NCBI GenBank assembly: GCA_902799185.1
Contig: CADBZO010000002.1
Span: 1-44,969, forward strand
Reading direction: 5' to 3'
DNA: 44,969 nt
Source: an uncultured Bacteroidales bacterium
Lineage (GTDB): Bacteria > Bacteroidota > Bacteroidia > Bacteroidales > Paludibacteraceae
Made by a program: the position numbers and the translations under genes. The notes under the pieces were generated by a model, which did no database searches, was not told the origin of the DNA, and worked only from the letters and a program-made list of their open reading frames with translations. Positions 182-29,585 of the stretch are shown piece by piece (the stretch's first letter is position 1; each line of letters starts with the position of its first letter).

Positions 182-186
182 GAACC

Positions 187-217
187 GACACCCCCCGACC
201 CCCTCTCAGAGGGGGAG
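187..217. repeat. GC-rich palindromic dispersed element, copy 1
   Basis: These 31 bases are identical to 4983-5013 inside prmC, and an inverted relative lies at 18292-18320 inside uvrD. The core CCCCTCTCAGAGGGG is a near-perfect palindrome. Here it sits just after a stop codon. Confidence 0.75.
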
Positions 218-233
218 GGGAGGATGTTAGACA

Positions 234-302
234 AAAGTAGAAAGACCGCTTCGCTCAAAGTAGAAAGCGAATTCTCAAATCTCAAATCTCAAATGTCAAA
301 TA
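234..302. repeat. AAAGTAGAAAGACCG element followed by TCTCAAA heptamers
   Basis: Bases 234-271 match 23086-23123 with two differences, and part of the element recurs at 19617-19636 in the opposite orientation. It carries two AAAGTAGAAAG blocks around a short CGCTTCG stretch. It is followed at about 272-302 by a 7-bp tandem array (TCTCAAA and variants). The 182-353 gap holds only these repeats and the gapA terminator. Confidence 0.7.
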
Positions 303-337
303 AAAAACCAGACGCCCATTGGACGTCTGGTTTGTTT
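301..337 (-). terminator. Rho-independent terminator of gapA
   Basis: A 10-bp stem AAACCAGACG (305-314) pairs with CGTCTGGTTT (324-333) and is followed on the minus strand by a T-rich tail. It lies 20 bases beyond the gapA stop codon. Confidence 0.85.
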
Positions 338-353
338 CGGATTTACACCCGGA

Positions 354-1421
354 TTAGTGGAGCTCAGCGAGGTACTTGATCGTACGTACCATCTGGCTGG
401 TGTAGCTGTTCTCGTTGTCGTACCAGCTAACTACCTGTACCTGATAGGTGTCCTCGTCGATCTTGGCTACCATGGTCTGGGTAGCGTCGAAGAGCGAACC
501 GAACTTCATACCGATTACATCGCTCGAAACGATCTCGTCCTCGGTGTAACCGAAGCTCTCGGTCTGAGCAGCCTTCATAGCGGCGTTGATACCCTCTTTG
601 GTGATGTCTTTGCCCTTAACGACAGCTACGAGGATCGTAGTCGAACCGGTCGGAGTCGGAACGCGCTGTGCGGAACCGATCAGCTTGCCGTTCAGCTCAG
701 GGATAACGAGACCGATAGCCTTGGCAGCACCGGTGCTGTTCGGAACGATGTTCTGTGCACCTGCACGGCTACGACGGAGGTCACCCTTACGCTGCGGGCC
801 GTCGAGGATCATCTGGTCGCCGGTGTATGCGTGGATGGTGCTCATGATACCGCTCTGGATCGGAGCGTATTTGTGCAGAGCTGCTGCCATCGGAGCGAGG
901 CAGTTGGTCGTACAAGAAGCGGCGGAGATAACGGTATCTGCCGGAGTCAGAGTCTTGTGGTTCACATTGTAAACGATGGTCGGGAGGTCGTTGCCTGCCG
1001 GAGCGGAGATAACCACTTTCTTGGCACCAGCCTCGATGTGAGCGGAAGCTTTAGCCTTGCTGGTGTAGAAACCGGTGCACTCCAGTACAACGTCGATACC
1101 CAGCTCGCCCCACGGCAGCTCAGCTGCGTTCGGCTTAGCGTAGATAGTGATCTCCTTGCCGTCAACCGTGATCGAACCCGGAGTAACAACAGTCTTGCCG
1201 TCCTCAGCGAGAACAGCGTCCTTGTAAGCAACCGTGTGCTTACCCTCGCCGAACTTACCTGCGAAACCACCCTGAGCGGTATCGTATTTGAGAAGGTGTG
1301 CCAACATTTTCGGGCTGGTCAAGTCGTTGATTGCAACAACCTCGTAACCCTCTGCCTCGAACATCTGACGGAACGCCAGACGACCAATACGGCCGAAGCC
1401 GTTAATAGCTACTTTTGTCAT
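354..1421 (-). CDS. gapA: Type I glyceraldehyde-3-phosphate dehydrogenase
   Basis: Cytoplasmic glycolytic enzyme that oxidatively phosphorylates glyceraldehyde-3-phosphate to 1,3-bisphosphoglycerate with NAD. The N-terminal Rossmann motif NGFGRIGR is at residues 7-14. The catalytic Cys170 sits in SAASCTTNC and the partner His197 in [10 protein letters not shown]. At 355 residues it is slightly longer than the usual 330-340, with the extra length around residues 55-85 ([15 protein letters not shown] and following). It has its own promoter upstream and a strong terminator downstream, so it is probably a single-gene transcript. The ATG at 1421 gives a leader of about 55 nt from the predicted promoter. 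Identification is secure. Confidence 0.98.
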
Positions 1422-1483
1422 AATTGTGGATTAATTTAAGTTATTTGTGTAATATTGTTAACGCTTGTTTTATTTAGCGGCTG

Positions 1484-1514
1484 CAAATTTACTACTTTTT
1501 TTTCATATATGAAA
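1484..1514 (-). promoter_or_regulatory. Promoter of gapA
   Basis: On the minus strand a -7 element TAAATTTG (1484-1491) lies 20 bases from a weak -33 element TTT (1512-1514). The -33 is the only one in the window that departs from TTG; it is followed by the usual CATATATG. Confidence 0.7.
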
Positions 1515-1575
1515 ATAAATCGTACAAAAAAAATTATTTTGTTACGTTTATTTGCCAAAAATCTCAATTCTCCAA

Positions 1576-1995
1576 TCACTTTCTCCCGAAGTCGGCGGGT
1601 ATCTCCCCCCACGCCCGGGTGTCCCACTTGTAGATGGGTGTGGTCCAGGTGTTGTCATGAAGCCACATCTCCGCCTTGCGCACCATGAAGAACAGGTCCT
1701 GGTTCGAAGCGTTCCACTCGATCTTGGTCTTGCACCGTTTCTGGCGCACCCATGCGAGGGCGGTGACGGAATCGGTATAGATGACCCACGGGAGGTTGTA
1801 TTTCTTGATATATGCCAACCCTAATACCAGTGCCAGAAACTCACCGATATTATTCGTCCCCTGTACGAACGGTCCGCGATGAAAGACCTCCGTTCCGGTA
1901 TCGGCTATCACGCCGCGGAACTCCATGATACCCGGGTTGCCGCTGCATGCGGCGTCCACTGCCAAGGCCGGTAATATGGGAGAGGTGGTTAACAT
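1576..1995 (-). CDS. Ribonuclease H family protein
   Basis: Predicted endonuclease that cleaves the RNA strand of RNA:DNA hybrids. At 139 residues it is a single RNase H fold without the N-terminal hybrid-binding domain found in many RNase HI proteins of this phylum. Carboxylates fit the expected pattern: Asp14 in VDAACSGNPG, Glu52 in NNIGEFLAL, Asp75 in IYTDS and Asp135 in IPADFGRK. Its ATG overlaps the stop of the DUF2461 gene by 7 bases (ATGTTAA on the minus strand), so translation is probably coupled. It is the last gene of the rfbC-rfbD-tRNA-DUF2461 run. The exact substrate (HI-like or other) is not determinable. Confidence 0.88.
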   Translation of the reverse strand: MLTTSPILPALAVDAACSGNPGIMEFRGVIADTGTEVFHRGPFVQGTNNIGEFLALVLGLAYIKKYNLPWVIYTDSVTALAWVRQKRCKTKIEWNASNQDLFFMVRKAEMWLHDNTWTTPIYKWDTRAWGEIPADFGRK

Positions 1996-2699
1996 CTGCT
2001 CGGGAATTCGCCGTACTCCTCGAAGGTGTAGTTGAGAAAATCATTCATCGGTTTGGCGGCACGGGCGATATCCGTGATATGGTCGATGAAATCGGGAGAA
2101 ATGACCTCTTCGTCACTCAGCATGACGCTGACCGTGTAGGTCTTGTGTTTGAGCCATTCAGGGTGCTTGAAATCCGGGTCAAAACCTGCAGGCACTTTCT
2201 TCAGTTGCCCCCAATACGGGTCAAAATCCTGTGCGAAATATTTCTTCCATTGTTTTGTGCCCATGATCTGCTCTACTTCTTCATAGTTCGCTTCTATCTC
2301 CGTGCGGAGCGCCTGGAGCAGTTCTTTTCCCGGGTCCCAGATGCCGGCAGTGAACATACACTGGCCTGGCTGGATGTGTACGTAGTAGCCGCCGCGCATG
2401 GATTTCTTGCCCCAGGTCTTCGGCTGGCCGGGTACGCCGGTGGCGGGGAAACAACCGAACCACTCTTTGTACGGCCTTTTGTCCGCCGAGAAACGGATGT
2501 CGCGGTTGATACGCCAGATACAATCCTTGGGCTGAAGACCCTCCAAGGTCGGGTCAATCTTTGTTAGACGGGAGATATATTCCGTAGAAAAAGCTACAAA
2601 CCTGTCCCGGCATGCCTGATACCGTGCCCTGTTGGCGTCAAACCAGTCTTTGTTGTTGTTGACCGCCAGCTCTGCCAGAAATTCCAAGATCTCTTTCAT
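1989..2699 (-). CDS. DUF2461 family protein
   Basis: A 236-residue protein of the DUF2461 / TIGR02453 family, widespread in bacteria and of unknown biochemical role. Recognisable blocks are an N-terminal FLAELAVNNNKDWFDANR, a central WRINRDIRFSADKRPYKEWF, and MRGGYYVHIQPGQCMFTAG. There is no signal peptide or membrane segment, so it is probably cytosolic. The frame extends 36 bases further upstream, but those codons lie inside the tRNA-Arg gene; the ATG at 2699 (MKEILEFLAEL) is the sensible start and leaves 11 bases after the tRNA. It overlaps the RNase H gene downstream. Confidence 0.9.
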   Translation of the reverse strand: MKEILEFLAELAVNNNKDWFDANRARYQACRDRFVAFSTEYISRLTKIDPTLEGLQPKDCIWRINRDIRFSADKRPYKEWFGCFPATGVPGQPKTWGKKSMRGGYYVHIQPGQCMFTAGIWDPGKELLQALRTEIEANYEEVEQIMGTKQWKKYFAQDFDPYWGQLKKVPAGFDPDFKHPEWLKHKTYTVSVMLSDEEVISPDFIDHITDIARAAKPMNDFLNYTFEEYGEFPSRC

Positions 2700-2710
2700 T
2701 GTCTTGTGTG

Positions 2711-2782
2711 TAGTCCCTTTGGGAATCGAACCCAAATCTGAGCTTTAGGAGAGCCCTGTTCTATCCATTGAACTAAGAGACC
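2711..2782 (-). tRNA. tRNA-Arg (anticodon CCT)
   Basis: A 72-nt cloverleaf on the minus strand. The acceptor arm GGTCTCT pairs with AGGGACT (two G-U pairs), the anticodon loop is CTCCTAA giving CCT, and the T-arm contains GGTTCGATTCC. CCA is not encoded. It is squeezed between rfbD (stop 8 bases upstream) and the DUF2461 start (11 bases downstream), all on one strand, with no separate promoter visible. Confidence 0.93.
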
Positions 2783-2790
2783 GGAATGAT

Positions 2791-3654
2791 TTAACCCTTT
2801 AACACTTTAACGCACCTGCCTAACGCTTCATACCAGTGGGGTATCTCTACGCCGAAGGTCTTTTTGAACTTCGATTTGTCCAGCACGCTGTAGTGCGGAC
2901 GGGGTGTCTTGTACTGATATTCTTCCGATGAAATCGGGAAAACATGGCATCGGGTGATGCCGGCTAAATCATGGATGGCGATGGTGAAATCGTACCACGA
3001 GCAGACCCCTTCGTTGGTGAAATGATAGATACCCGGATGCCAGGAAGGGTTCTCTATCACGGTGAAGATGGCTTTTGCCAGATCCGCCGCATAAGTAGGC
3101 GTACCGATCTGGTCGAAGACAACCCCCAGTCTGTCCCGCTCGTTCCCGAGACGGATCATTGTCTTGACGAAGTTGTTGCCGAACGACGAATAGAGCCATG
3201 CGGTACGCAGGATGACAGCTTCCGGACAAGACGCCAGCAGGATTTTCTCCCCCTCGTATTTGGTGCGTCCATAGACCGTGCGCGGAGCTACCTGGTCACT
3301 CTCGCGGCAAGGCAGGTGCTCGTCGCCGGAGAAGACATAGTCGGTAGAGACATGGATGACGCGTATGCCCTGGTTGCCCAATACGCCCAGCGCCTCGGCG
3401 TTGATCTTCATCGCCGTAGCCTCGTCTTCCTCCGCCTTGTCCACGTTGGTATAGGCAGCGCAGTTGACAATCAGGTCAATCCGGTTCCGCTCCACGAATG
3501 CCGCGACCGCCGTCTTGTCGGTGATGTCCAGCGTCTCTACTCCTTCGCTCTCCACGATATCCGTGAAGAAATAGGTGTGCTTGGGATGACTCCCACTCGC
3601 CACCCGCATCTCATTGCCCAACTGGCCGTTACTGCCTGTTATTAATATATTCAT
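2791..3654 (-). CDS. rfbD: dTDP-4-dehydrorhamnose reductase
   Basis: Last enzyme of dTDP-L-rhamnose synthesis: NAD(P)H-dependent reduction of dTDP-4-dehydro-L-rhamnose, feeding surface polysaccharide. At 287 residues it has the family's normal length. The nucleotide-binding motif is TGSNGQLGNE at residues 6-15, the extended-SDR YxxxK pair is in VYGRTKYEGEK, and HVSTDYVFSG and TAWLYSSFGNNFV are typical blocks. It lies just downstream of rfbC, separated by a 7-bp repeat array. rfbA and rfbB, which make the substrate, are not in this window. Confidence 0.97.
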   Translation of the reverse strand: MNILITGSNGQLGNEMRVASGSHPKHTYFFTDIVESEGVETLDITDKTAVAAFVERNRIDLIVNCAAYTNVDKAEEDEATAMKINAEALGVLGNQGIRVIHVSTDYVFSGDEHLPCRESDQVAPRTVYGRTKYEGEKILLASCPEAVILRTAWLYSSFGNNFVKTMIRLGNERDRLGVVFDQIGTPTYAADLAKAIFTVIENPSWHPGIYHFTNEGVCSWYDFTIAIHDLAGITRCHVFPISSEEYQYKTPRPHYSVLDKSKFKKTFGVEIPHWYEALGRCVKVLKG

Positions 3655-3657
3655 AAA

Positions 3658-3700
3658 ATCTCAAATGTCAATTCTCAATTCTCAATTCTCAATTCTCAAA
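3658..3700. repeat. Heptamer array AATTCTC between rfbC and rfbD
   Basis: Tandem 7-bp units (TCAAATG, then about five AATTCTC units) fill the rfbC-rfbD gap and run into the 3' end of rfbC. The last two sense codons (Glu-Asn) and the TGA stop of rfbC lie within the array. Confidence 0.85.
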
Positions 3701-4243
3701 TGGAGAGACAAAGTCTCTCAACAACGGGTGTTTCTTGTCTTTGTCGCTCAGAATACGCAACTCTTCCGGCACCTGCCAGTCTATCGCCAGGTCGGGATCG
3801 CTCAGCAGAAGCCCTCCGTCCGCCTCGGGGTGGTAGAGGTTGTCGCATTTATAAGTGAAGATAGCCTGATTGCTCAGCACCGAGAAGCCGTGTGCAAACC
3901 CGCGGGGGATGAAGAACTGGCGTTTGTTCTCCTCGCTCAACTCGACGCTGTACCATTGTCCGAAAGTAGGGCTGTCCTTACGCAGATCGACCGCTACGTC
4001 CAGCACTCTGCCTACGGTGCAGCAGACCAGCTTCGCCTGGGTATAGGGCGGGCGCTGGAAATGCAAGCCGCGTACCACGCCGTAGGACGAGCAGGACTGG
4101 TTGTCCTGCACGAAAACGGCATCGATACCCGCCTCGCGGTAGCGTTGCTCATTGTATGTCTCTACGAAATAGCCGCGTGCGTCCTTAAAAACCTGCGGCT
4201 CGATAACCAGAAGTCCCTCAATGGGAGTTTTGATGATATTCAT
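3689..4243 (-). CDS. rfbC: dTDP-4-dehydrorhamnose 3,5-epimerase
   Basis: Epimerises dTDP-4-dehydro-6-deoxy-D-glucose at C3 and C5 to the L-rhamnose precursor used by RfbD. It has 184 residues, a single cupin domain of normal length. Family motifs are VRGLHFQRPPYTQAKL (catalytic His in GLHFQ), GRVLDVAVDLRKDSPTFGQW and IPRGFAHGFSVLS. The reading frame ends in a 7-bp repeat array that supplies the codons for the final Glu-Asn and the TGA, so the original C-terminus may have been replaced or trimmed. A promoter lies about 170 bases upstream, giving a long leader. Confidence 0.97.
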   Translation of the reverse strand: MNIIKTPIEGLLVIEPQVFKDARGYFVETYNEQRYREAGIDAVFVQDNQSCSSYGVVRGLHFQRPPYTQAKLVCCTVGRVLDVAVDLRKDSPTFGQWYSVELSEENKRQFFIPRGFAHGFSVLSNQAIFTYKCDNLYHPEADGGLLLSDPDLAIDWQVPEELRILSDKDKKHPLLRDFVSPFEN

Positions 4244-4263
4244 CGGATTATTTACAATATTAT

Positions 4264-4404
4264 ATAATTTACAATGTACAATTTACAATGTACAAAGGGC
4301 TTTGGAGTTTGGTACAATTTTTTTGAGATACGTACGGACTTCCCGGTTTGTACCAATGTCTTTAGGACGCTTTGTTCATTGTTAATTAATCATTGTTCAT
4401 TGAT
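4264..4404. repeat. Heptamer arrays and an inverted repeat in the rfbC leader
   Basis: Bases 4264-4298 are 7-bp units alternating TTACAAT and GTACAAT. Bases 4374-4404 are another 7-bp series built on TTCATTG and ATCATTG. Between them a perfect 9-bp inverted repeat, TTGGTACAA (4309-4317) with TTGTACCAA (4348-4356), could form a hairpin in the transcript. No gene is seen in 4244-4447. Confidence 0.7.
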
Positions 4405-4413
4405 TTGCGAGTG

Positions 4414-4444
4414 CAAAGGTACTACTTTTTTTTGACATATGCAA
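4414..4444 (-). promoter_or_regulatory. Promoter of the rfbC-rfbD run
   Basis: Minus strand: TTG (4442-4444) extended as TTGCATATG, 20 bases, TACCTTTG (4414-4421). It sits directly after the recX stop codon and faces rfbC. Confidence 0.85.
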
Positions 4445-4447
4445 GGA

Positions 4448-4879: not shown

Positions 4880-5804
4880 AGATATCTTGGGTGATTCGGA
4901 TGTTCGTATAGCCGGCCTCCGCCATCATGGCAGCCACTTCGGCGGCGTAGGCCTCGTTGATCTCGAAGAAGAGGGAGAGGGGGACACCCCCCGACCCCCT
5001 CTCAGAGGGGGAGAAAGGGATTGGTGATGGGGAGAAGAGTTGCGCAATGCGGCGGTAGAAACGCAGGGGATCGGAGTCCGGGACAAAGAGGGCGGAGGCG
5101 GGCTCATAGTCCAGCACGTTCGGACGCATGTCTTTTTTCTCGCTTTCGCAGATATAGGGCGGGTTGGAGACAATTAAGTTGAAAGTTGAAAGTTGAGAGT
5201 TAATAGTTTCCTCGATTTCATCGGAGAAAATATCCGCTACCCGGAAATCCACATCCACGTGGTTGCGCAGTGCGTTCTCCCGCGCCACGGCGACGGCTTC
5301 CGGAGAGATGTCTATGCCGGTGACCTGCCACTCGGGACGGGCTTTCTTCAACGCAATAGCTATGCAGCCGGTGCCGGTACCGATATCCAGCACCCGGATG
5401 GGGGCATTGGAGAATTGAGAATTGAGAATTGAGAATTGAGAATTCTTATCTCGGCAAGGCCTCGAACGATCGGCTGAAGCCGTATGGAGATTTAAGATTT
5501 GTTCGACCAGTTCGGCGGTTTCGGGACGGGGGATGAGGGTGGCGGGAGTGACTTTGAGGTCCAGGCCATACCACACGGTATGACCGAAAATATACTGAAT
5601 CGGTTCGAAACGCAATAATCTGTCGATGATTTCTTGCGTATGTGCAAAATTTTTTGTATCTTTGCACCCGAATTGCAATTCCGTGCGGCAGAGACCGGTG
5701 ATTTCTTCGGCTATCCACCACGCCAGCGCAAGGGCTTCGTCGGCCGGATAAGCGGAAGCCAATTGGGATTTGATAGTTGATATTTGATAGTTGATATCTG
5801 ACAT
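4839..5804 (-). CDS. prmC: Release factor glutamine methyltransferase PrmC, with repeat-derived insertions
   Basis: Methylates the Gln of the GGQ motif in RF1 and RF2 using S-adenosylmethionine. The SAM-binding motif is VLDIGTGTGCIAIAL, and the catalytic NPPY is in LIVSNPPYI. Upstream, QYIFGHTVWYGLDLKV and LIPRPETAELVEQIL are characteristic. At 321 residues it is about 40 longer than usual. Four stretches coincide with dispersed repeats: DINYQISTIKSQL at the start, KNSQFSILNSQFSN before the SAM motif, INSQLSTFN just before NPPY, and SPSPIPFSPSERGSGGVP near the C-terminus. The frame stays open through all of them, so a functional protein is likely. The ATG at 5804 lies about 15 nt after the predicted transcription start. 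Confidence 0.95.
   Translation of the reverse strand: MSDINYQISTIKSQLASAYPADEALALAWWIAEEITGLCRTELQFGCKDTKNFAHTQEIIDRLLRFEPIQYIFGHTVWYGLDLKVTPATLIPRPETAELVEQILNLHTASADRSRPCRDKNSQFSILNSQFSNAPIRVLDIGTGTGCIAIALKKARPEWQVTGIDISPEAVAVARENALRNHVDVDFRVADIFSDEIEETINSQLSTFNLIVSNPPYICESEKKDMRPNVLDYEPASALFVPDSDPLRFYRRIAQLFSPSPIPFSPSERGSGGVPLSLFFEINEAYAAEVAAMMAEAGYTNIRITQDIYGKDRIIEGRMAQ
4979..5030. repeat. GC-rich palindromic element inside prmC
   Basis: Bases 4983-5013 are identical to 187-217. On the coding strand the element reads SPSERGSGGVP and is in frame. The core CCCCTCTGAGAGGGG is palindromic. Confidence 0.8.
5173..5206. repeat. Heptamer array AGTTGAA inside prmC
   Basis: Tandem 7-bp units AGTTGAA, AGTTGAA, AGTTGAG, AGTTAAT on the plus strand. 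On the coding strand they read INSQLSTFN, directly before the catalytic LIVSNPPY. Confidence 0.8.
5410..5445. repeat. Heptamer array AATTCTC inside prmC
   Basis: About five tandem copies of the 7-bp unit (GAGAATT on the plus strand). The coding strand reads NSQFSILNSQFS: seven codons per three units, stop-free in every frame in this orientation. Confidence 0.9.
5769..5799. repeat. Heptamer array at the 5' end of prmC
   Basis: Tandem 7-bp units GATAGTT/GATATTT on the plus strand, read on the coding strand as DINYQISTIK immediately after the start Met-Ser. Confidence 0.85.
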
Positions 5805-5825
5805 TCGGGATTTTTATTTCCGGTG

Positions 5826-8615: not shown

Positions 8616-10226
8616 ATGCAAGTAGAGTTAGTTTTATTGGTATTATCGCTGTTGTTTTTTGTCAGCATTTTTGCAGATAAGATAGGGTACAAGTATGGTG
8701 TCCCGGCTCTGCTGCTGTTTCTGATAGTAGGTATGCTGTTCGGTTCGCACGGTCTGGGAGCCGTGTGGGGCGGTTCGGGAATGGAGATAGAGATAGGTTC
8801 CGCCCAGGCTATCAGTACCCTGGCAATGTGTATCATCCTGTTCACCGGCGGTATGGAGACGAAGCTGAGCGACATCAAATCGGTGCTGGCACCGGGTGTG
8901 ACGCTGGCAACGATAGGCGTGCTTGTGACGTGCGTTATCACGGGTGTGATTATCTATTACATCTTTGGTCTGTTGAGTGCCATCACGTCTATCTCCATCT
9001 GGATGGCGCTGCTGATGGCGGCTACGATGAGCAGTACGGACAGCGCGAGTGTGTTCTCTATCCTGCGAACGAACGGCATAGGACTGAAGCACAACCTGAG
9101 GCCTCTACTGGAACTGGAGTCCGGCGCCAACGACCCGATGGCGTATGTGCTGACGACGACCCTGATCAGCGTTGTAGTGGGTTTGAATAAAGCCGCTACG
9201 GGCGGTGCGGAGGTGGCGGCACTGCCGATAGTCCAGACGATTGTCGTGCAGCTGGTGATGGGGGCGGTACTGGGTATGGCATTCGGTAACGGGCTGGTGA
9301 TGCTGATGCGGCGCGTCAAACTGGGCAACGAAGCCCTCTATCCGATCATGGTGCTGACAGCCTGTATCTTTATCTTCTCGGTGACCTATTACCTGCAAGG
9401 CAATACGTATCTGGCAGTATATGTGGGCGGTCTGATTATCGGCAACAGCAAGTTCGCCCGCAAACGTCAGACGAAATCGTTCTTCAACGGTCTGACATGG
9501 CTCAGTCAGCTGGTGATGTTCCTGATGCTGGGGCTGATGGTGCGTCCGGCTGATTTCCTGGACTACCATGTGTGGCTGCCGTGTCTGATCATCAGTATCG
9601 TGATGGTGCTTATCTCACGTCCGGTGGCGGTTTATCTGTGTATGCTGCCTTTCCGCCAGTACCGCCAGCGGGACAAACTGATGCTGAGTTGGGTGGGACT
9701 GAAAGGGGCGGTGCCGATTATCTTCGCCATCATGTGCAAAGCCAGCGGCGTGCCGGCAGCAGATATGATTTTCAATATTGTGTTCCTCTGCACCATCGTG
9801 TCCCTGTTGGTACAAGGCACCACGCTGACTTATGTAGCCACCAAACTGGATCTGGCTACCCAACCTCAGGAGGCGCGTTCGCTGGAGTATTTCGATATAG
9901 ACCTGCCGGACGAGATACAGTCGTCTGCACGCGAGATAGAAGTGTCCGAGCAGATGCTGGAGAAAGGCAACACCCTGCGTAACATCCAGCTTCCGCCCCA
10001 TACACTGGTAGTGATGGTGCGCCGCGACGAAGATTTCTTCGTGCCTACGGGCGTGAGCGAGTTGCAGAAAGGTGACCAGCTTCTCGTCATCAGTGACCAG
10101 GACGCGGAGGCCAGCTACAAGCAGATGACCGATGCCGCGGAGGAGGAGGCGCAGTGGCGCGCCGATATGCGTGCAAGGGCACGCGAGCGGTGGAACAAGG
10201 CTACGGCGTGGATGCACAGGAAGTGA
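8616..10226 (+). CDS. Potassium/proton antiporter of the CPA1 (NhaP2/CvrA) type
   Basis: Integral inner-membrane cation/proton antiporter of 536 residues. Around twelve hydrophobic segments fill residues 1-390, with family blocks STDSASVFSILR and LELESGANDPMAYVL that carry the conserved ion-binding Asp. The cytosolic tail has a TrkA-C-like regulatory domain at about 410-490 (LPPHTLVVMVRRDEDFFVP and GDQLLVIS), which places it with NhaP2-type K+/H+ exchangers. A charged helix ends the protein. Ion choice is inferred from the domain arrangement. Confidence 0.9.
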   Translation: MQVELVLLVLSLLFFVSIFADKIGYKYGVPALLLFLIVGMLFGSHGLGAVWGGSGMEIEIGSAQAISTLAMCIILFTGGMETKLSDIKSVLAPGVTLATIGVLVTCVITGVIIYYIFGLLSAITSISIWMALLMAATMSSTDSASVFSILRTNGIGLKHNLRPLLELESGANDPMAYVLTTTLISVVVGLNKAATGGAEVAALPIVQTIVVQLVMGAVLGMAFGNGLVMLMRRVKLGNEALYPIMVLTACIFIFSVTYYLQGNTYLAVYVGGLIIGNSKFARKRQTKSFFNGLTWLSQLVMFLMLGLMVRPADFLDYHVWLPCLIISIVMVLISRPVAVYLCMLPFRQYRQRDKLMLSWVGLKGAVPIIFAIMCKASGVPAADMIFNIVFLCTIVSLLVQGTTLTYVATKLDLATQPQEARSLEYFDIDLPDEIQSSAREIEVSEQMLEKGNTLRNIQLPPHTLVVMVRRDEDFFVPTGVSELQKGDQLLVISDQDAEASYKQMTDAAEEEAQWRADMRARARERWNKATAWMHRK

Positions 10227-10227
10227 T

Positions 10228-10271
10228 TTGACATTTGATATTTGAGATTTGATATTTGACATTTGATATTT
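10228..10271. repeat. Heptamer array ATTTGAT upstream of the epimerase gene
   Basis: Six to seven tandem 7-bp units (ATTTGAC, ATTTGAT, ATTTGAG) fill almost the whole 49-bp gap between the antiporter stop and the next ATG. Confidence 0.9.
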
Positions 10272-19085: not shown

Positions 19086-19615
19086 AAGGTGATGACTATT
19101 GTTGCGAGAATGACCCACACGGGGTTAACTCCTCCGAGCCAGATGAGCAGCGCTGCGGCTAATGAGACCAGGAGCGGAAGATAATTTTGAATTTTTAATT
19201 TTGAATTTTTAATTTTAAGTGCGGATTTTGCCATCTTCACCAGCGGTGCGGCAATCAGCGCTACCACCGCCGGACGGATACCTTTGAAGGCGGCCTCTAC
19301 CGCCGGCAGTTCTTTCCATTCGCTGAAGACCATGGCGATAGCCAGAATGATGAGGAACGACGGCAGTACGGCTCCCAGCACCGCCCCGCATACGCCACGC
19401 CAACCGCCTATACGCCAGCCTATGAAGATAGCCGAGTTGACGGCGATGAGACCCGGTGCTGCCTGCGCCAGGGCGATCATGTTGAGAAACTCCTCCTCGT
19501 CAATCCACCCCCGCCGGTCTACCACCTCCCGCTGGATAAGCGGCAGCATGGCATAGCCTCCACCCAAGGTGAAGGTGCCGATCTTCAGATATGTCCAGAA
19601 AAGCTGAAAAAACAT
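19046..19615 (-). CDS. chrA: Chromate transporter (CHR family), first half-size subunit
   Basis: Membrane protein of 189 residues, one CHR domain with about six hydrophobic segments. Motifs: FWTYLKIGTFTLGGGYAMLP, RGWIDEEEFLNMIALAQAAP and GLIAVNSAIFIGWRIGG. A charged loop reading ALKIKNSKLKIQNYL, just before the last hydrophobic segments, is encoded by a 7-bp repeat array. It starts 17 bases after udk, and that spacer contains a small hairpin from another dispersed repeat. It should function with the overlapping downstream CHR protein. Confidence 0.9.
   Translation of the reverse strand: MFFQLFWTYLKIGTFTLGGGYAMLPLIQREVVDRRGWIDEEEFLNMIALAQAAPGLIAVNSAIFIGWRIGGWRGVCGAVLGAVLPSFLIILAIAMVFSEWKELPAVEAAFKGIRPAVVALIAAPLVKMAKSALKIKNSKLKIQNYLPLLVSLAAALLIWLGGVNPVWVILATIVITLCSIYLSLYHSSK
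19182..19217. repeat. Heptamer array TTGAATT/TTTAATT inside chrA
   Basis: Tandem 7-bp units alternating TTGAATT and TTTAATT on the plus strand; read in frame on the coding strand as LKIKNSKLKIQN in a loop between membrane segments. Confidence 0.85.
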
Positions 19616-23230: not shown

Positions 23231-24577
23231 TTAGTTCAGCCGCTTGCCGGTTACTTTCAGGTCTCCCAGTTGGAGGTATTTCTTGCCTTGCGGCTTGCCG
23301 TTGGAGTCATACCACGGCAGGATACGCAGGTGGAGCGTCTGTCCGGCGGGAACGAGGATCGGTTGGTCCAGACGGATGAGGATCTCTTTGTTTTTTCGCA
23401 GCGCCGTATTCTCATAGATAGTAGTCACGCCGCTGAACGCCTCGCCGAAGCCGTAGTTGATATGGATATTCATGCCTTCGCCGCCTACGGCTTTGACAGG
23501 AAGGGTGATTGTCTCGATGACGAGGCCTTTCTTCTTCTCTGCGGCGATGGTATATTCGATATAGCGGTTGGCTACCTCGTCTATCTCTCCTGCCGGCCAT
23601 AGACCGCCTGTGGCAATATAGCCTTTCTTCCCGAGCTCCATATTCTGTAAATTGTGAATTGTAAATTGTGAATCGAACGGCGTTCCCTTGGCGGCGAAGG
23701 CGGCTTTTTTGCCGGCGTCCTCTATTTTCTGCGCATAGGCGGTGTACTGCTCTTTGGTGGGGAAGAGGGTCCATGCTTGCAGTTCGGCGAGCTCCGGAGA
23801 CTGGCTGAGGAGTTCGTAGGCGAGCGAAGCGACAGCCATACCGCCGGCGGCGGAGGTATGCGTCTTGTCGCCGCAGTTGAAATAGTTAGCCATGCAGAAC
23901 TCCCGGCCGGCTTGCTCGAAAGCCTCCCGGCTCCGCGCGGTCATGTCCAGAAACGGCACGCTCATCTCTTCCGCTACTTCGCGCATGCAGCGTACATAGT
24001 CTTTGTCCTTCGTACTTTGTCCATTGTCCCTTTGTAACTTGTGTTGTCCTTCGTCATTGATCTTGCCGTCCTTTCCGAAATATGCGCGGCAGATAGGTGA
24101 CATTAGAACAGGCGTCACCCCCATCTCCCGTGCTTCACGGATATACCGGCGGAGGTAAGCCTTATAGGTGGTGTTGGGCTCCGTACCGCGCATGTCAGTG
24201 AGTGTATCTTTGCCTTCGGCGCGCAACTGCGCGTTCTCTACATACACATCCTCGCCCTTGCATTTCTCGTCGTTATGGGCGAACTGGATGATGAGGTAGT
24301 CGCCGGCGTGCATCTGACTTTTGACGGATGGCCAGAGGTTGTCTGTCTCGTAGAACGTACGCGTGCTGGCACCGCTCTTGCCGCGGTTGTTGACCGTCAC
24401 CGAGTCGGCGTTGAAGAACGCCTGCAGATACATTCCCCAGCCGCGTTTGGGCGTTGCAGCAGGTTTGTACTCGCTCATGGTGCTGTCTCCGATGGTGTGA
24501 ACTTTACGCGGTGCGGCGGTAAGCGGCAAAGCCATCAAGGACAATGTACAAAGGAAGAAAAAATTGTGTTTTGACAT
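23231..24577 (-). CDS. SGNH-hydrolase, rhamnogalacturonan acetylesterase-like
   Basis: Secreted carbohydrate esterase of 448 residues that probably removes acetyl groups from pectic rhamnogalacturonan (CE12-like). Signal peptide MSKHNFFFLCTLSLMALPLTAA. Catalytic blocks: IGDSTMSEY (Ser32), block II NRGKSGAST, block III IIQFAHND, and the Asp/His block GDKTHTSAAGG. A C-terminal beta-rich region of about 150 residues follows the esterase fold. Two loop stretches are repeat-derived: RDNGQSTKDKDYV and SQFTIHNLQNMEL. The start at 24577 is chosen for the signal peptide. It follows the unrecognised small gene by 14 bases. Confidence 0.85.
   Translation of the reverse strand: MSKHNFFFLCTLSLMALPLTAAPRKVHTIGDSTMSEYKPAATPKRGWGMYLQAFFNADSVTVNNRGKSGASTRTFYETDNLWPSVKSQMHAGDYLIIQFAHNDEKCKGEDVYVENAQLRAEGKDTLTDMRGTEPNTTYKAYLRRYIREAREMGVTPVLMSPICRAYFGKDGKINDEGQHKLQRDNGQSTKDKDYVRCMREVAEEMSVPFLDMTARSREAFEQAGREFCMANYFNCGDKTHTSAAGGMAVASLAYELLSQSPELAELQAWTLFPTKEQYTAYAQKIEDAGKKAAFAAKGTPFDSQFTIHNLQNMELGKKGYIATGGLWPAGEIDEVANRYIEYTIAAEKKKGLVIETITLPVKAVGGEGMNIHINYGFGEAFSGVTTIYENTALRKNKEILIRLDQPILVPAGQTLHLRILPWYDSNGKPQGKKYLQLGDLKVTGKRLN
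23646..23673. repeat. Heptamer array inside the esterase gene
   Basis: 7-bp units AATTGTG and AATTGTA on the plus strand, read on the coding strand as SQFTIHNLQN between the esterase core and its C-terminal region. Confidence 0.8.
23997..24048. repeat. Second heptamer-type repeat inside the esterase gene
   Basis: A CTTTGTC/CATTGTC series with 7-bp period (CTTTGTC, CTTCGTA, CTTTGTC, CATTGTC). The coding strand reads a charged loop ending in NGQSTKDKDY. Confidence 0.65.
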
Positions 24578-25515: not shown

Positions 25516-26751
25516 TTATTCTACTCTGAATGCCGGTGCCATTAGTTCTTGTTCTTCGCGGGGGATGCGGTAGTGCATAGCCCATTTGCGCCAATCAGCC
25601 ACATGCCGTTTGATGGAATCAACGATTTGAGCAGATTCAGCAGCATCAATACCGAAGTACGGAGCGACATCAGTAGCCAGCTCAAAATCCAAAGCATTGG
25701 AATGTTCGTCAATATTAAGGCTTAATCCGGTGCCGTAATACATAGGATTTAAATCATAGGCGGGCGCAAGTCTCCAACCATTTCCAGAGAGCAGAAAGCC
25801 ATGATTGCGCAGGTGGTCGTCGCAGTTGCTGATGGCGATATTAAAGACCAGCCGTTTCCATAGTTCCTCTAAGTCTTTTTGCGCCTGGCAACTATTGCGT
25901 GCAATCCACTCGGCGAGCTCCAGATACGAGCACCCATCCGTATGACCGTCATGGTAGCCGAGCATAGTCATCGCAGATGTGAAATGAATACGTTTGTTGT
26001 CTTGCGTGCGATCAAAGCGGCGGGTAAGGAATGACGCGTGTTGATTGAACCGGATGCAATCAAAATCGGCGACAGTAAGGCCGCAAGCACGGGCTAATTG
26101 CATCGCAACCGCTTCCCATGCTCCTATATCTTGCCGATCGCTTCGACTCGTGAATTTGGCTATCCACAAGGAGCCATCCGGTGCTTGCACATTTGCTTTC
26201 GGTCTTGCTCCTCCTAACGAAGAACCGGGGGCTAATAAGATTTGCAGCCATTTGCGCATATTGGGGTCATCATCGTTTTCCAGATGCAAGCTGGCTTGTT
26301 CCAGTTCGCGCAGGGAAGTGAAAGGCGGTGTCGTATATTGCGAATCATCATCAAGAAACGGACCATTCAAATCTGTTTTCAGGCGTAGCGCACCCATACG
26401 CGTGCTATCACAAACTCCTAAGAGGAAGTCACTTTCCATGAGTGTTTTCCGAGGGCGTTGCTCATCTTTTGAGTGAATGGACTCTCTGCGTTCAAGCAAC
26501 ACTCGCCCCCATCTATCCGGAGCGGAGTCTGTGAAAATACCAAAGTTGGCCTTGTCATCCGCCAAGAACTGCCGTCCCCTGAACAACTGCAAATCCGGGT
26601 CTAACAAACGGCAATATGGAGTCTGTAACCACTCGGGCTCAAACTCAAACGAGAATATCTCCTTTCCACGTGAAGGTTGCGCAAACAGACGCCCCATTAG
26701 AACGGGCGTCTCTACGCGGAAATCGTCAAAATAGATGTATATCGTTTGCAT
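25516..26751 (-). CDS. hipA: HipA-family toxin (serine/threonine kinase)
   Basis: Type II toxin of 411 residues. HipA kinases of known function phosphorylate aminoacyl-tRNA synthetases and arrest growth. It has the N-terminal HipA couple domain (residues 1 to about 110) and then the kinase: glycine-rich loop LAPGSSLGGARPKANV, lysine in LWIAKFTSR, catalytic ISNCDDHLRNHGFLL and metal-binding APAYDLNP. It is full length, not split. It starts 3 bases after hipB, so the pair is a single operon with antitoxin first. The whole module sits between two long direct repeats. Confidence 0.95.
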   Translation of the reverse strand: MQTIYIYFDDFRVETPVLMGRLFAQPSRGKEIFSFEFEPEWLQTPYCRLLDPDLQLFRGRQFLADDKANFGIFTDSAPDRWGRVLLERRESIHSKDEQRPRKTLMESDFLLGVCDSTRMGALRLKTDLNGPFLDDDSQYTTPPFTSLRELEQASLHLENDDDPNMRKWLQILLAPGSSLGGARPKANVQAPDGSLWIAKFTSRSDRQDIGAWEAVAMQLARACGLTVADFDCIRFNQHASFLTRRFDRTQDNKRIHFTSAMTMLGYHDGHTDGCSYLELAEWIARNSCQAQKDLEELWKRLVFNIAISNCDDHLRNHGFLLSGNGWRLAPAYDLNPMYYGTGLSLNIDEHSNALDFELATDVAPYFGIDAAESAQIVDSIKRHVADWRKWAMHYRIPREEQELMAPAFRVE

Positions 26752-26754
26752 AGA

Positions 26755-27060
26755 TTATTTGGCTTTGGTCACGCGTTTAGAGATCGTTAGCCCTGCGTCT
26801 TGTAGTTTGCGGCCGAGGATATCATCTTGCGCAACGGAATGCAAATCCTCTTCCAAACCGAGCACTATGAGCACACGCAGGTAATAGCCTATCGCCACTC
26901 CCTCATCGCCGTTCTCTATCTTGATAAGGGTGTTGCGCGCTATACCGGCTCTTTCCGCCACTTGTTCGGAAGGCAAATTACGCCGTAACCGAGCCAAACG
27001 GATGTTTTCTCCTAAATCATGAAGTAGTCTTTCGTGCTTAGGCAATAGTGCTCTTTTCAT
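26755..27060 (-). CDS. hipB: HipB-type antitoxin, XRE-family DNA-binding protein
   Basis: 101 residues with a helix-turn-helix at about 15-70 (NIRLARLRRNLPSEQVAERAG, followed by IARNTLIKIENGDEG), the XRE family pattern. It should neutralise the adjacent HipA kinase and repress its own promoter. A basic C-terminal tail (LTISKRVTKAK) may contact HipA or DNA. Upstream are two TGCGCA boxes 20 bases apart on either side of the -7 element, which could be the operator. Confidence 0.92.
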   Translation of the reverse strand: MKRALLPKHERLLHDLGENIRLARLRRNLPSEQVAERAGIARNTLIKIENGDEGVAIGYYLRVLIVLGLEEDLHSVAQDDILGRKLQDAGLTISKRVTKAK

Positions 27061-27167: not shown

Positions 27168-27660
27168 ATATGCAAGAGGGAGAGGGGATTTTTTCGGTTT
27201 TTTCTGGAAAATCCGGAAGATCAGGAGCGCGAAGGCTATACAGGAAAATCAGGAGCGCGAAGGCTATACCGGATGTCGGGATTCAATCCCGACGCAATGG
27301 ACAAAGTATTCGCCGCTCTGACGTGCGGCGCACCCGACAAAGAGAGGCCGGCATCCGATGCCGGGGAAAAAAGAAAGGGGCAAAAGAAAGGGGCAAAAGA
27401 AAGGGGCGAAAGAAAGGAATCCCGCTCGCGGAACTCGCGGGCACAGGACACCGGGGGCGACTATTCGGCAACAGAGATGCCGGGCACAGGGCACCGGGGG
27501 CGACTATTCGGCAACAGAGATGCCGGGCACAGGACACCGGGGGTGACTATTCGGCAACAGAGATGCCGAACACAGGACCCTAAGGGCGACTATTCGGCAA
27601 CGGAGATGCCGAACACAGGACACCGGGGCGACTATTCGGCAACGGAGATGCCGGGCACAG
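27168..27660. repeat. Mosaic hairpin-rich repeat, copy 2 (upstream of hipB)
   Basis: Same order as copy 1 at 25107-25408, with hairpins 1-3 identical in sequence. It is longer because three tandem tracts are expanded or altered: a 28-bp unit, a 13-bp purine-rich unit (GAAAGGGGCAAAA, about 3.5 copies near 27370-27418), and the 43-bp array. No convincing gene lies in 27061-27684. Confidence 0.9.
27441..27654. repeat. Five tandem 42-43-bp units
   Basis: Units start at 27441, 27484, 27527, 27570 and 27613. Each reads GCACAGGACACCGGGGGCGA and then CTATTCGGCAACAGAGATGCCGG with few changes. CGGCA/TGCCG forms a small hairpin in each. Units are contiguous with no spacers. Copy 1 of the mosaic repeat has only one full unit. 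Confidence 0.93.
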
Positions 27661-27684
27661 CATGCCAGAAGCAAAAATGCAAAA

Positions 27685-28707
27685 TTATAGCAACACGCGG
27701 TTGAACTCTTTGGGAACAGGGGACTCGAAGCGGACTTTCTTCTCTGTCACGGGGTGGATGAACTCCAGCACCTTGGCATGTAGGCAGAGGCGGTCAATAG
27801 GGGACGACTCATTACCGTGGCCGTACTTGCGGTCGCCGACGACGGGGCAGCCCTTGGAAGCAAGATGCACGCGGATTTGGTTGGTGCGGCCGGTCTCGAG
27901 ATGCAATTCCACGAGGGAATAAGAAACCCCTCCCGCAGGGAGTTCTACGGACGGCCACCGGCTGTCCGATCGAGCAGAGCTCTTCACCCGCACAAGGGAG
28001 GAGAAGTGTTTGCTGCCGGGTTCCCTCCCTTGAGGGGAGGGTTGGGTTGGGGTTGTTGAGGTTTTCAGCACCTTGTAATTGGTGATGGCGATGTCGCCGC
28101 CGTCATCGACGGGGGAGGAATAGACGACGGCATTGCGTTTGTCTTCGGTGAGCCAGGTGGTGATCTTGCCTTCGCGGGGTTCGAGGACTCCTTCGGCAAG
28201 GGCTATATAGGTACGGTCGGTGACGAGTTCGCGCCAGTAGGTCCGCATATAATGCTGTAGCTCCTCGGAACGGGCGAAGACGAGCAGTCCGGAGGTCTCA
28301 CGGTCGAGTCGGTGCACGACGTATATGTTCGCACGCGCGTTCTGTTTTTTTACGTACGCGCGTAGGATGGACATGACGGTTGTCTCGCGGCTGCCGGGGG
28401 TGGTAGCTACGGTAAGGAGTCCGGGCTGTTTGTTGACGACGATGAGGTCATCGTCCTCATAGACGATCTTGAGTTTAGGGTGGGTGAGTTGGGCGTTTCC
28501 GCGTCCGGAAGAGACGGTGACGGTGTCGCCCGGTTTGAGGGCGAAGTCATGCCTTGTCTGAATGGCAGCGCCCACTTTGACGCGGCGCTGGCCGAGCAAC
28601 TGTTTGACGGATGATTTGGCCATGCCACCCATCTTGGCGATGAGGAAATCCATTAACTGCGCGGGTTCAGCGACTTTTAATACGGTGTCTTGTTTTCGTT
28701 TGATCAT
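27685..28707 (-). CDS. RluA-family pseudouridine synthase
   Basis: Converts uridine to pseudouridine in rRNA or tRNA; the exact site is unknown. 340 residues. The N-terminal S4-like RNA-binding region is about 15-75. The catalytic motif HRLDRETSGLLVF carries the Asp nucleophile, and GRTNQIRVHLASKGCPVVGD is the second family block. A roughly 45-residue insertion (from KTSTTPTQPSPQGREPGS onward) breaks the catalytic domain before YSLVELHLETG and includes a GC palindrome. The ATG at 28707 (MIKRKQDTVLK) is preferred to an upstream one at 28749. Confidence 0.93.
   Translation of the reverse strand: MIKRKQDTVLKVAEPAQLMDFLIAKMGGMAKSSVKQLLGQRRVKVGAAIQTRHDFALKPGDTVTVSSGRGNAQLTHPKLKIVYEDDDLIVVNKQPGLLTVATTPGSRETTVMSILRAYVKKQNARANIYVVHRLDRETSGLLVFARSEELQHYMRTYWRELVTDRTYIALAEGVLEPREGKITTWLTEDKRNAVVYSSPVDDGGDIAITNYKVLKTSTTPTQPSPQGREPGSKHFSSLVRVKSSARSDSRWPSVELPAGGVSYSLVELHLETGRTNQIRVHLASKGCPVVGDRKYGHGNESSPIDRLCLHAKVLEFIHPVTEKKVRFESPVPKEFNRVLL
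28010..28060. repeat. GC palindrome inside the RluA-family gene
   Basis: On the coding strand CCCTCCCCTCAAGGGAGGG (28023-28041) reads as PSPQGR in frame; related to the element in pnuC. Confidence 0.7.
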
Positions 28708-28761
28708 AAGGAAACTCTTGTCTCGGCATGTATGCCGAGGGTTAAACAAAATAGTTGCTCG

Positions 28762-29538
28762 TTATTCATTACAAATGCGTTTGAGCCAGCCGTAGTTTTC
28801 GGGTCTGGTGGCTTTGATCCACGCGATGCCAGCCATGGAGTTGATGACCAGGAAGAACGTGAAGAGGACAATAGAGAAGATATTGCCGACAATAATGAAT
28901 AATCCTATACCGGCAATGCTGTATATAAACCAATAGATCCAGGAGTCCGTTTTACGGTAAATGAGCCAGTAGTTAGCCAGGAAAGAGGAAGAGATGAGGA
29001 GACCGTTGAGGAGTAACTGAGAAGCTCCCTCTCCTTGGGAGAGGGTAGGGGTGAGGTGTGTCATTATCAGGAAGTCGCCGGCGGTGATGGCGATGAGTAG
29101 CGCGACAGACAGAATAAGGCGGGGTGTGTCAAGGAACTTGGGTTCAAAGGATGCCCCGCCGTCGTCTTTCGACCGGCTCCATTTGTAAATCGACATCATC
29201 TGGAAGGGGACGAAGACAAAGAAATAGAGGAAGGTGCTGTCAAACTGTCCCTGGAGCAGAAACTGTATGCCCAAAAGGACAGACATGATTATTCCGGCGT
29301 AGAATCCGGTGTAGTTTTTCGGGTCCCGTATAGTCAGTATATACGCCACGCCGATGACGGAGGCGGGAATACCGACAAGCCAGGCGGGGTCGTGCCACTT
29401 CAATAATTGAGAATTGAGAATTGAGAATTGAGAATTAAGAATCCATTCTGCAAGCCAGAGGAGACCCATAAGAGCTCCGAAAAGGATGATAGAGATGAGG
29501 GTGTTGCGGCCGAGGGCGCGCCATAAGATGCTTTGCAT
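28762..29538 (-). CDS. PnuC-like nicotinamide riboside transporter
   Basis: Membrane protein of 258 residues with seven or eight hydrophobic segments. The segment ANYWLIYRKTDSWIYWFIYS, then FFLVINSMAGIAWIKA, fits the PnuC pattern of a Lys/Asp/Trp-rich loop before the last helices. This suggests vitamin B3 ribonucleoside uptake for NAD synthesis. Two loops are repeat-derived: ILNSQFSILNSQLLKW early, and LTPTLSQGEGASQ later. The gene ends 54 bases before the RluA-family start. PnuC assignment rests on overall shape and the last helices. Confidence 0.7.
   Translation of the reverse strand: MQSILWRALGRNTLISIILFGALMGLLWLAEWILNSQFSILNSQLLKWHDPAWLVGIPASVIGVAYILTIRDPKNYTGFYAGIIMSVLLGIQFLLQGQFDSTFLYFFVFVPFQMMSIYKWSRSKDDGGASFEPKFLDTPRLILSVALLIAITAGDFLIMTHLTPTLSQGEGASQLLLNGLLISSSFLANYWLIYRKTDSWIYWFIYSIAGIGLFIIVGNIFSIVLFTFFLVINSMAGIAWIKATRPENYGWLKRICNE
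29020..29055. repeat. GC palindrome inside the pnuC-like gene
   Basis: CCCTCTCC-TT-G-GGAGAGGG at 29027-29045. On the coding strand it reads LTPTLSQGEGAS, in frame, in a loop between membrane segments. Confidence 0.75.
29403..29441. repeat. Heptamer array AATTCTC inside the pnuC-like gene
   Basis: About five 7-bp units, identical in type and coding orientation to those in prmC (5410-5445). It reads ILNSQFSILNSQ just after the first membrane segment. Confidence 0.9.
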
Positions 29539-29560
29539 GGTGATTGAAATTAAAAAATTA

Positions 29561-29585
29561 AAATTACGAATTACGAATTACGAAT
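29561..29585. repeat. Heptamer array AATTACG upstream of the pnuC-like gene
   Basis: Three tandem AATTACG units preceded by AT-rich sequence, in the gap between the L31 terminator and the pnuC-like start. No promoter of the usual form was found here. Confidence 0.8.

What the first reader, a model, noticed from the sequence alone, without database searches (positions are those of the whole stretch)
182..29585. 7-bp tandem arrays between genes and in frame inside conserved genes
At least twelve arrays with a strict 7-bp period occur (272-302, 3658-3700, 4264-4298, 4374-4404, 5173-5206, 5410-5445, 5769-5799, 10228-10271, 19182-19217, 23646-23673, 29403-29441, 29561-29585), plus weaker relatives at 6398, 11328 and 23997. 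Different unit sequences share the period. Six conserved genes (prmC, pnuC-like, chrA, ribD, esterase, epimerase) carry arrays without losing frame. The AATTCTC type is stop-free in all frames only in one orientation, and that is the coding orientation in both prmC and the pnuC-like gene, which suggests selection after insertion. Heptameric short tandem repeats are known in cyanobacteria; their spread into coding loops here is striking.
Basis: partly seen in the sequence, partly recalled or inferred. Interest (0 to 1): 0.75.

Follow-up and report, generated by a model that had tools for sequence, protein, structure and literature searches.

The report
Seven-letter repeats rewriting protein loops
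A group of uncultured rumen bacteria carries hundreds of short 7-letter DNA repeats whose length and wording change between close species, between genes and also inside flexible loops of basic proteins, where nearly all changes seen keep the gene readable.

Summary
The window is part of a 2.43-Mb MAG whose nearest named relatives are rumen Bacteroidales/Paludibacteraceae. All twelve listed arrays exist; the ribD and epimerase "relatives" are weak. Period 7 is specific: 120 arrays per 837 kb sampled here against at most 22 for any other period from 4 to 16 except its harmonic 14, and 0.8 per 100 kb in other families of the order. The units share one loose grammar, TRANADT (5.36 bits; controls 3.18 ± 0.07).

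Against a sister species, 9 of 63 testable arrays kept length and unit and 10 differ by multiples of 7. Differences at arrays inside genes keep frame in 19 of 22 and 13 of 13 comparisons. One-way arrays inside genes run in the open orientation 29:2, those between codirectional genes 10:12. The PrmC linker carries heptads in 31 of 65 species, in 19 unit classes. Unit types bloom species by species. An 84-bp MITE-like core has heptads as inverted arms.

Best reading: unusually active 7-bp repeat turnover (slippage, plus inferred spread between loci) overwriting tolerant DNA. New variant of known bacterial heptanucleotide repeats.

The parts
273..301 (.). heptad array (TCTCAAA), convergent intergenic space beyond the GAPDH gene
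3656..3701 (.). heptad array filling the stop-to-start gap of rfbC/rfbD; it includes the rfbC stop codon. The sister has exactly 21 bp less and AAATCTC units where this genome has AATTCTC
4264..4298 (.). left heptad arm (AATTTAC/AATGTAC) of the MITE-like element
4292..4381 (.). core of the MITE-like element (about 84 bp, imperfect palindrome, ACAAAG...CTTTGT ends) with the first arm bases; absent at this site in the sister
4372..4404 (.). right heptad arm (degenerate, inverted relative to the left arm)
5173..5206 (-). in-frame heptad array inside prmC (INSQLSTFN); same length in the sister
5410..5444 (-). in-frame heptad array in the PrmC interdomain linker (NSQFSILNSQFS); the sister has 21 bp less and ATTTGAG units; the linker carries heptads in 31 of 65 species
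5768..5801 (-). heptad array forming the N-terminal codons of the called prmC frame; same length in the sister
10226..10271 (.). heptad array filling the gap between the stop of a K+/H+ antiporter gene and the ATG of the epimerase gene; the sister has 21 bp plus one base less
19182..19217 (-). in-frame heptad array in a ChrA loop whose aligned segment is 18 residues in 18 of 29 relatives and 27 here
23646..23673 (-). in-frame heptad array in a GDSL esterase
29403..29442 (-). in-frame heptad array in a PnuC loop whose aligned segment is 22 residues in 19 of 29 relatives and 28 here
29561..29585 (.). AATTACG array upstream of pnuC
4983..5021 (-). second kind of repeat in the same gene: 39-bp in-frame palindromic (REP-like) insert in prmC, absent in the sister

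Best explanation
The arrays are a fast-moving class of 7-bp tandem repeats special to this group of Paludibacteraceae-like bacteria. Copies are gained and lost in whole 7-bp steps, most simply by strand slippage (the steps are shown; slippage is inferred). A unit type that arises in a species spreads to many dispersed arrays in that genome (species-specific blooms are shown; copying between loci is inferred). The process lands on, and rewrites, DNA that can tolerate it: spacers between genes, gene ends, and loops or linkers of conserved proteins. Inside genes, selection keeps mostly the strand without stop codons and length changes that preserve frame (shown). A small hairpin element with heptad arms moves some arrays as a unit (one insertion shown; the transposase is unknown). 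No positive function of the arrays is shown; I read them as tolerated or selfish DNA.
For: Period 7 dominates: 120 arrays per 837 kb here and 61 per 794 kb in the sister; no other period from 4 to 16 exceeds 22 and 17, except the harmonic 14 (74 and 29). Two-copy 7-bp duplications outside arrays exceed expectation between genes (42 against 7.7; sister 20 against 5.2). Of 31 intergenic indels of 5-42 bp between the species, 14 are multiples of 7. Only 9 of 63 testable arrays kept length and dominant unit; differences at arrays inside genes are multiples of 3 in 19 of 22 (own to sister) and 13 of 13 (sister to own; some sites counted both ways). One-way arrays inside genes are sense-open 29 of 31, between codirectional genes 10 of 22. 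Blooms, as exact hits in 61 genomes: (AATTCTC)3 51 here, 50 in G069, 32 in G087, 0 in 49 genomes; (AAAGGTG)3 28 here, 21 in G030, 0 in 47; the sister has 4 (AATTCTC)3 hits at up to 1 mismatch. Arrays sharing a locus share the unit more often than shuffled labels (11 of 174 pairs against 3.8, p 0.002). Grammar TRANADT in all arrays, and a like signal in intergenic arrays alone (5.24 bits against 3.44 ± 0.15).
Against: Slippage was not observed directly, only inferred from two MAGs about 10% apart. At 12 of 35 sites with an array in both species the difference is not a multiple of 7 (own to sister), so wholesale replacement also occurs. Copying between loci left no direct trace that I found, such as copied flanks; repeated local mutation plus slippage could mimic blooms. 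Two of four unit searches are weak as blooms: (AATTACC)3 has 14 hits against 10 for its reversed control, (AAATTTC)3 43 against 17; the controls are heptads themselves. Slippage as such does not explain the common grammar. Three of 22 differences at called internal positions are not multiples of 3, and called genes, ends included, also show indels of 7, 7, 14, 14 and 35 bp. Of the 48 arrays inside genes, 11 have stops on both strands in some frame and 6 on neither, so they do not speak to orientation.
Confidence: 0.6

Rival explanations
1. Pure local replication slippage: every array grows and changes on its own, and blooms only reflect shared mutation bias or descent.
For: 7n indels, excess of two-copy 7-bp duplications, and the published idea that 7 nt suits polymerase slippage (introduction of PMC4679880, passages seen). 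The AATTCTC change at shared sites is one base away from the sister's unit.
Against: The same new unit (AATTCTC) appears at several dispersed sites where the sister has AAATCTC or AATTATC, and AATTCTC and AAAGGTG blooms are concentrated in a few species. Different families at one site with non-7n differences.
Confidence: 0.22
2. Mobile-element origin: heptad arrays are the arms (hairpin stems) of MITE-like elements, and solo arrays are their remains.
For: 12 copies of one core in the sampled DNA (11 here, 1 in the sister); of 11 readable on both sides, 8 score for heptads on both sides, against 0.9% of 4,000 random intergenic points. The arms are inverted and two elements folded as DNA give one long stem (z -4.98 and -4.07). 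One whole arm-core-arm insertion is missing in the sister, leaving a clean site, with CATTC repeated at the junctions.
Against: By BLAST the core is in only 2 of 61 genomes (the sister was not in that set, and the search missed some copies known, the window's own among them), while arrays are common across the group. Most arrays have no core beside them. Three of 11 copies do not reach the score on both sides. No autonomous copy was seen.
Confidence: 0.1
3. Selected function: the arrays act as sequence signals, for example stops in all frames between genes, or binding sites with 7-bp spacing.
For: The conserved core of the grammar, TRA, reads as the stop codons TGA or TAA on one strand; arrays at 3656-3701 and 10226-10271 run from the stop of one gene to the start of the next; the PrmC linker site recurs across species.
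Against: Intergenic arrays between codirectional genes show no strand preference (19 against 17 here, 9 against 7 in the sister; open strand 10 against 12). Presence at a site turns over fast (28 of 63 have no array in the sister).
Confidence: 0.06
4. Templated writing by a reverse transcriptase or by a REP-associated tyrosine transposase.
For: A loose but shared grammar and species-wide blooms.
Against: No RVT_1 match in 5 of 9 genomes that are rich in these repeats, including this one, the sister and a 97% complete one (G034). Y1_Tnp only at borderline scores inside long frames in 4 of 9, and none over the cut-off in the other 5. Several genomes are incomplete.
Confidence: 0.02

Closest known systems
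Heptanucleotide simple sequence repeats of bacteria (GGGAATC in Xanthomonas, GGGGA(T/C)T in Nostoc; PMC4692102, passages seen)
   Same: 7-bp unit, many dispersed arrays, length and sequence variation between related genomes
   Different: The passages describe G-rich repeats of one motif type studied mainly in intergenic regions; here many AT-rich unit families follow one grammar, with species-specific blooms and a third of arrays inside genes. Their units do not fit the grammar
TAACTGA direct repeats of Beggiatoaceae, cyanobacteria and five Bacteroidetes (PMC4679880, passages seen)
   Same: Heptamer arrays, patchy taxonomic distribution, often near start codons, some in Bacteroidetes
   Different: There one fixed unit, and related heptamers rarely repeat; here dozens of related units repeat. 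19% of all 7-mer classes fit the grammar at least as well as TAACTGA
Heptad repeat stems (Class I TDNGATT, Class II NNTGAGT) in the Nostoc trnL intron P6b loop (PMC4476775, passages seen)
   Same: Degenerate 7-nt motifs, 7- and 14-nt indels, repeated switching of motif class at one site, hairpin stems built of heptads as in the MITE-like arms here
   Different: One intron site there; genome-wide and in protein-coding loops here
BrickBuilt MITE with a 23-bp minisatellite in Porphyromonas gingivalis (PMC4596501, outline and abstract seen)
   Same: Bacteroidales MITE combined with tandem repeats
   Different: 23-bp repeats inside the element, always intergenic; here 7-bp repeats form the outer arms

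Membership tests
Bacterial heptanucleotide SSR / STRR | strict 7-bp tandem period, above chance | tested here: met
Bacterial heptanucleotide SSR / STRR | copy-number change in whole units | tested here: met
   10 of 63 testable sites have arrays in both species and differ by 7n; 14 of 31 intergenic indels of 5-42 bp are 7n; 12 of 35 shared sites differ otherwise
Bacterial heptanucleotide SSR / STRR | mainly intergenic | tested here: inconclusive
   of 146 arrays 48 lie inside predicted genes, 50 overlap gene ends, 47 are intergenic and 1 lies at an edge
TAACTGA repeat family | unit TAACTGA | tested here: not met
   not among the dominant units in either species; no special fit to the grammar
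Contingency (phase-variable) loci | repeat change switches a surface or modification gene by frameshift | tested here: not met
   in the window the arrays sit in housekeeping and transport genes, and internal length changes keep frame in 19 of 22 and 13 of 13 comparisons
MITE | short non-coding element with terminal inverted repeats and several similar copies | tested here: met
   core only: about 84 bp, ACAAAG...CTTTGT ends, at least 14 copies here and 7 in G034, 86-96% identical to the query where matched
MITE | target-site duplication and a transposase acting in trans | tested here: inconclusive
   one clean empty site with CATTC repeated; no transposase identified
REP/RAYT system | RAYT transposase in the genome | tested here: inconclusive
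   one borderline Y1_Tnp match (24.1 bits, cut-off 23) within a 375-residue frame here; none in G034, G069, G087 or G062

The most novel reading that the evidence does not exclude
Dispersed heptad arrays in one genome are homogenised by direct sequence transfer between non-homologous loci (ectopic templated copying between arrays that share a 7-bp register). Unit types then sweep through a species like alleles of a dispersed satellite and rewrite protein linkers at constant length and frame.
Probability: 0.25. Interest if true: 0.8.

Novelty: new variant of a known kind. Interest (0 to 1): 0.6.

Why it matters
It offers a natural case in which a repeat-generating process visibly writes amino-acid sequence in a conserved protein: the PrmC linker reads NSQFSIL, NYQLPI, NFKFQI or RLKVKG according to the heptad present in the species. 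Because 7 and 3 are coprime, a DNA heptad becomes a 7-residue protein repeat, often open in one orientation only, so mutation pressure and selection can be separated in the same repeats. With a sister species and dozens of relatives in hand, the old question of why 7-bp repeats prevail in bacteria becomes testable.

Tried and rejected
Stop-codon insulator idea: suggested by the TRA core of the grammar, rejected as the main driver because intergenic arrays have no strand preference. Reverse transcriptase and RAYT as writers: not supported. Core element as a known RNA: Rfam at gathering thresholds finds only two tRNAs in the window. All arrays as MITE arms: judged unlikely, since the core is found in 2 of 61 genomes (not a sensitive search). 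A first regular-expression extraction of the PnuC and ChrA loops failed for most rows and was replaced by an alignment. Shared sequence with other published heptads: not found, except that the best variant of Nostoc class I fits, which is weak because many variants were tried. The co-substitution statistic (48% at distance 7, at most 9% at others) largely follows from periodicity itself, so I use only the shared length and register of those linkers. Literature: six searches listed no paper that describes this in Paludibacteraceae; the library lacks most subscription papers. Of PMC4060949 I saw passages only and built nothing on them. The cyanobacterial STRR work and the 2007 SSR survey are known to me only through other papers' passages.

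Selection and limits: genome stretches were mostly from long contigs and are about a third of each of the two genomes. In the other-family sample several contigs were short (20 genomes, 256,980 bases). The 65 PrmC rows are those of 73 sequences (window and 72 loci) that matched my motif. One of the six seed peptides that fetched the loci came from the array itself, which may favour array-bearing loci. The linker count is 31 of 65 at score 8, 23 at 12 and 17 at 14; equal stretches just downstream give 0 of 65, and period 8 gives 5 at score 8. The tree is a quick single-gene tree with many weak forks. Genes were called by my own simple script. In PnuC, one of the four relatives counted as having heptads (L283) is probably chance. 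Pattern counts are hits, so one long array counts several times. Reversed-pattern controls were not always empty: 5 hits against 179, 17 against 43, 14 against 100, 10 against 14. Check made for this report.
Full report
What is in the window. A stricter run-length test gives eight period-7 arrays in the window and none in 50 shuffles; the only comparable period is the harmonic 14. The window is 45 kb of contig 2 of a 2.43-Mb, 55-contig MAG. Its closest named relatives are rumen MAGs labelled Bacteroidales or Paludibacteraceae; the nearest, RUG12032 (L039, G061), is collinear at about 85-89% nucleotide identity over 349-11899.

How general it is. I read 837 kb of this genome and 794 kb of the sister. 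At one threshold there are 120 and 61 period-7 arrays; after the harmonic 14 (74 and 29) the next periods are 11 (22 and 17) and 9 (19 and 11). Per 100 kb this is 14.3 here and 7.7 in the sister; it is 7.0 in 17 stretches of 16 same-genus genomes, 11.4 in the PrmC loci L040-L110 and 0.8 in stretches of twenty other families of the order. So the accumulation belongs to this group, not to the order.

One grammar, many units. The 146 arrays (score 12 or more) of this genome have 36 dominant units out of 1,172 possible classes. Aligning all arrays over strand and phase gives one loose consensus, T-R-A-N-A-D-T, worth 5.36 bits; permuting columns within arrays gives 3.18 ± 0.07 (40 controls). The sister, treated independently, gives the same consensus (4.71 against 3.15 ± 0.10). 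Taken alone, the 47 intergenic arrays give 5.24 bits (control 3.44 ± 0.15), with a consensus close to the complement of TRANADT though looser at some positions, and the 48 internal arrays 5.93 (3.59 ± 0.13). Other published heptads do not share it, apart from some Nostoc class I variants.

Turnover. Direct alignment with the sister shows 21 bp (three units) more in the PrmC linker array and in the rfbC/rfbD spacer array, and 21 bp plus one base more before the epimerase gene, while two other prmC arrays have equal length. Of 63 testable arrays here (of 146), 28 have no array in the sister, 9 are unchanged in length and dominant unit, 4 have the same length but another unit, 10 differ by a multiple of 7, and 12 differ otherwise. 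Of 36 testable sister arrays (of 74), 6 have none here, 13 have equal length, 6 differ by 7n and 11 otherwise. In 286 kb of alignment, 14 of 31 intergenic indels of 5-42 bp are multiples of 7. Two-copy 7-bp duplications outside arrays exceed a third-order Markov expectation between genes (42 against 7.7), with smaller absolute excesses at 6 and 8-12; inside genes the excess at 7 is slight (60 against 39.8). At several sites the two species carry different heptad families, including in what look like coding loops.

Inside genes. Of 146 arrays, 48 lie inside predicted genes, 34 overlap 3' ends, 16 overlap 5' ends, 47 are intergenic and one lies at an edge. Among arrays that are stop-free in all frames on one strand only, those inside genes have the open strand as sense 29 of 31 times here and 18 of 19 in the sister; between codirectional genes the figures are 10 of 22 and 4 of 9. 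The remaining internal arrays (17 here, 10 in the sister) are open on both or neither strand. Length differences at internal arrays are multiples of 3 in 19 of 22 and 13 of 13 comparisons, some sites being counted in both directions.

The loops. PrmC passes the release-factor methyltransferase equivalog model. Its interdomain linker holds heptads in 31 of 65 rows (23 at the stricter score), against 0 of 65 in equal stretches just downstream. They fall in 19 unit classes; on a quick PrmC tree built without the linker the class changes at least 30 times and presence or absence at least 15 times. Of 28 loci with an 18-residue linker, 16 have heptads, and by eye 12 of these share register and end in the same AAT-TGY codons, with different units. 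Other relatives have REP-like peptides at the same place. In PnuC the aligned loop has 22 residues in 19 of 29 relatives and heptads in 4 of 29 (one doubtful). In ChrA it has 18 residues in 18 of 29 (one further row is cut short) and heptads in 2 of 29; other insertions occur. So the PnuC and ChrA loops were lengthened in a few species, whereas the PrmC site is old and repeatedly reworded.

Blooms. Exact hits to three-copy arrays in 61 genomes of the genus are concentrated in few species: AATTCTC in 12 genomes (51 here, 50 in G069, 32 in G087, 16 each in G018 and G083; reversed control 5 hits in all) and AAAGGTG in 14 (28 here, 21 in G030; control 14 in all). AAATTTC (15 genomes, 43 hits, none here, 10 in G034; control 17) and AATTACC (6 genomes, 14 hits, none here; control 10) are weaker. 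The sister has 4 AATTCTC hits at one mismatch. Within 12-kb loci of 56 genomes, arrays share units more often than with shuffled labels (11 of 174 pairs identical against 3.8; mean distance 2.38 against 2.63, below all 1,000 shuffles). This fits spread within genomes; it does not prove copying.

A mobile carrier. The window's 4264-4404 is an element with an 84-bp core and heptad arms in inverted orientation. The sampled DNA has 12 copies; 8 of 11 with both sides readable score for heptads on both sides, the window's own copy just missing on one side (0.9% of random intergenic points do). BLAST finds at least 14 copies here, 7 in G034 and none in 59 other genomes, but it missed known divergent copies. 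Arms and core fold as one long hairpin in the two elements tried. One complete insertion between two genes is absent from the sister, with CATTC repeated at the junctions.

Mechanism. Shown: 7-bp steps, fast turnover, frame and strand filtering in genes, species-specific blooms of two units, and one element insertion. Inferred: slippage as the source of steps, spread of units between loci, and absence of a positive function. Not supported: reverse transcriptase or RAYT writing and a stop-signal role.

Novelty. Heptanucleotide repeats are a known kind: passages of PMC4679880, PMC4692102 and PMC4476775 were seen. What appears new is the combination of many units under one grammar, species-level change of unit, and repeated rewriting of protein loops in a bacterial genus. 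Six literature searches listed no report of it.

Noticed in passing
window 4983-5021 and, by eye in translations, the UvrD gene (16224-18491), pnuC (28762-29538) and 27685-28749: A second repeat kind, CCCCCTCT..AGAGGGGG-type palindromes, sits in frame in prmC and is suggested by SERGAGGG / TPTLSQGEG-like peptides in the other genes; relatives carry such peptides in the same PrmC and ChrA loops.
   Followed up: partly
window 27438-27660: 43-bp minisatellite, 5.2 copies, 90% matches, next to a 13-bp array (27369-27417) and a 28-bp repeat (27215-27273) that resembles one at 25152-25206.
   Followed up: no
window 25516-27060: HipA-type kinase gene (HipA_C) with a small gene beside it that looks like a helix-turn-helix partner (recalled, not tested), lying between the two related repeat regions.
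   Followed up: partly
window 18203-18276: 27-bp (9-bp) repeat in the C-terminal linker of a UvrD/PcrA helicase gene, another repeat-made linker.
   Followed up: no
window 5822-5862, 4400-4445, 44936-44969: Conserved GTGCAAAGGTAC..TTTTTTTGACATA motif, the largest dispersed cluster once heptads are masked (111 segments in 837 kb), probably the promoter type of this group (recalled Bacteroidales -7/-33 elements).
   Followed up: no
L132:2693-2971, L123:741-839 and others: Long 9-bp arrays (TTTGCGTAG) in this genome; 9 and 11 are the next favoured periods after 7 and 14.
   Followed up: no
L175:16358-16519 and about 35 other places: Composite of hairpin modules (GACGGCGGAGCCGT, GTCCGGAT..ATCCGGAC) often within 200 bp of heptad arrays (16 of 36 segments).
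   Followed up: no
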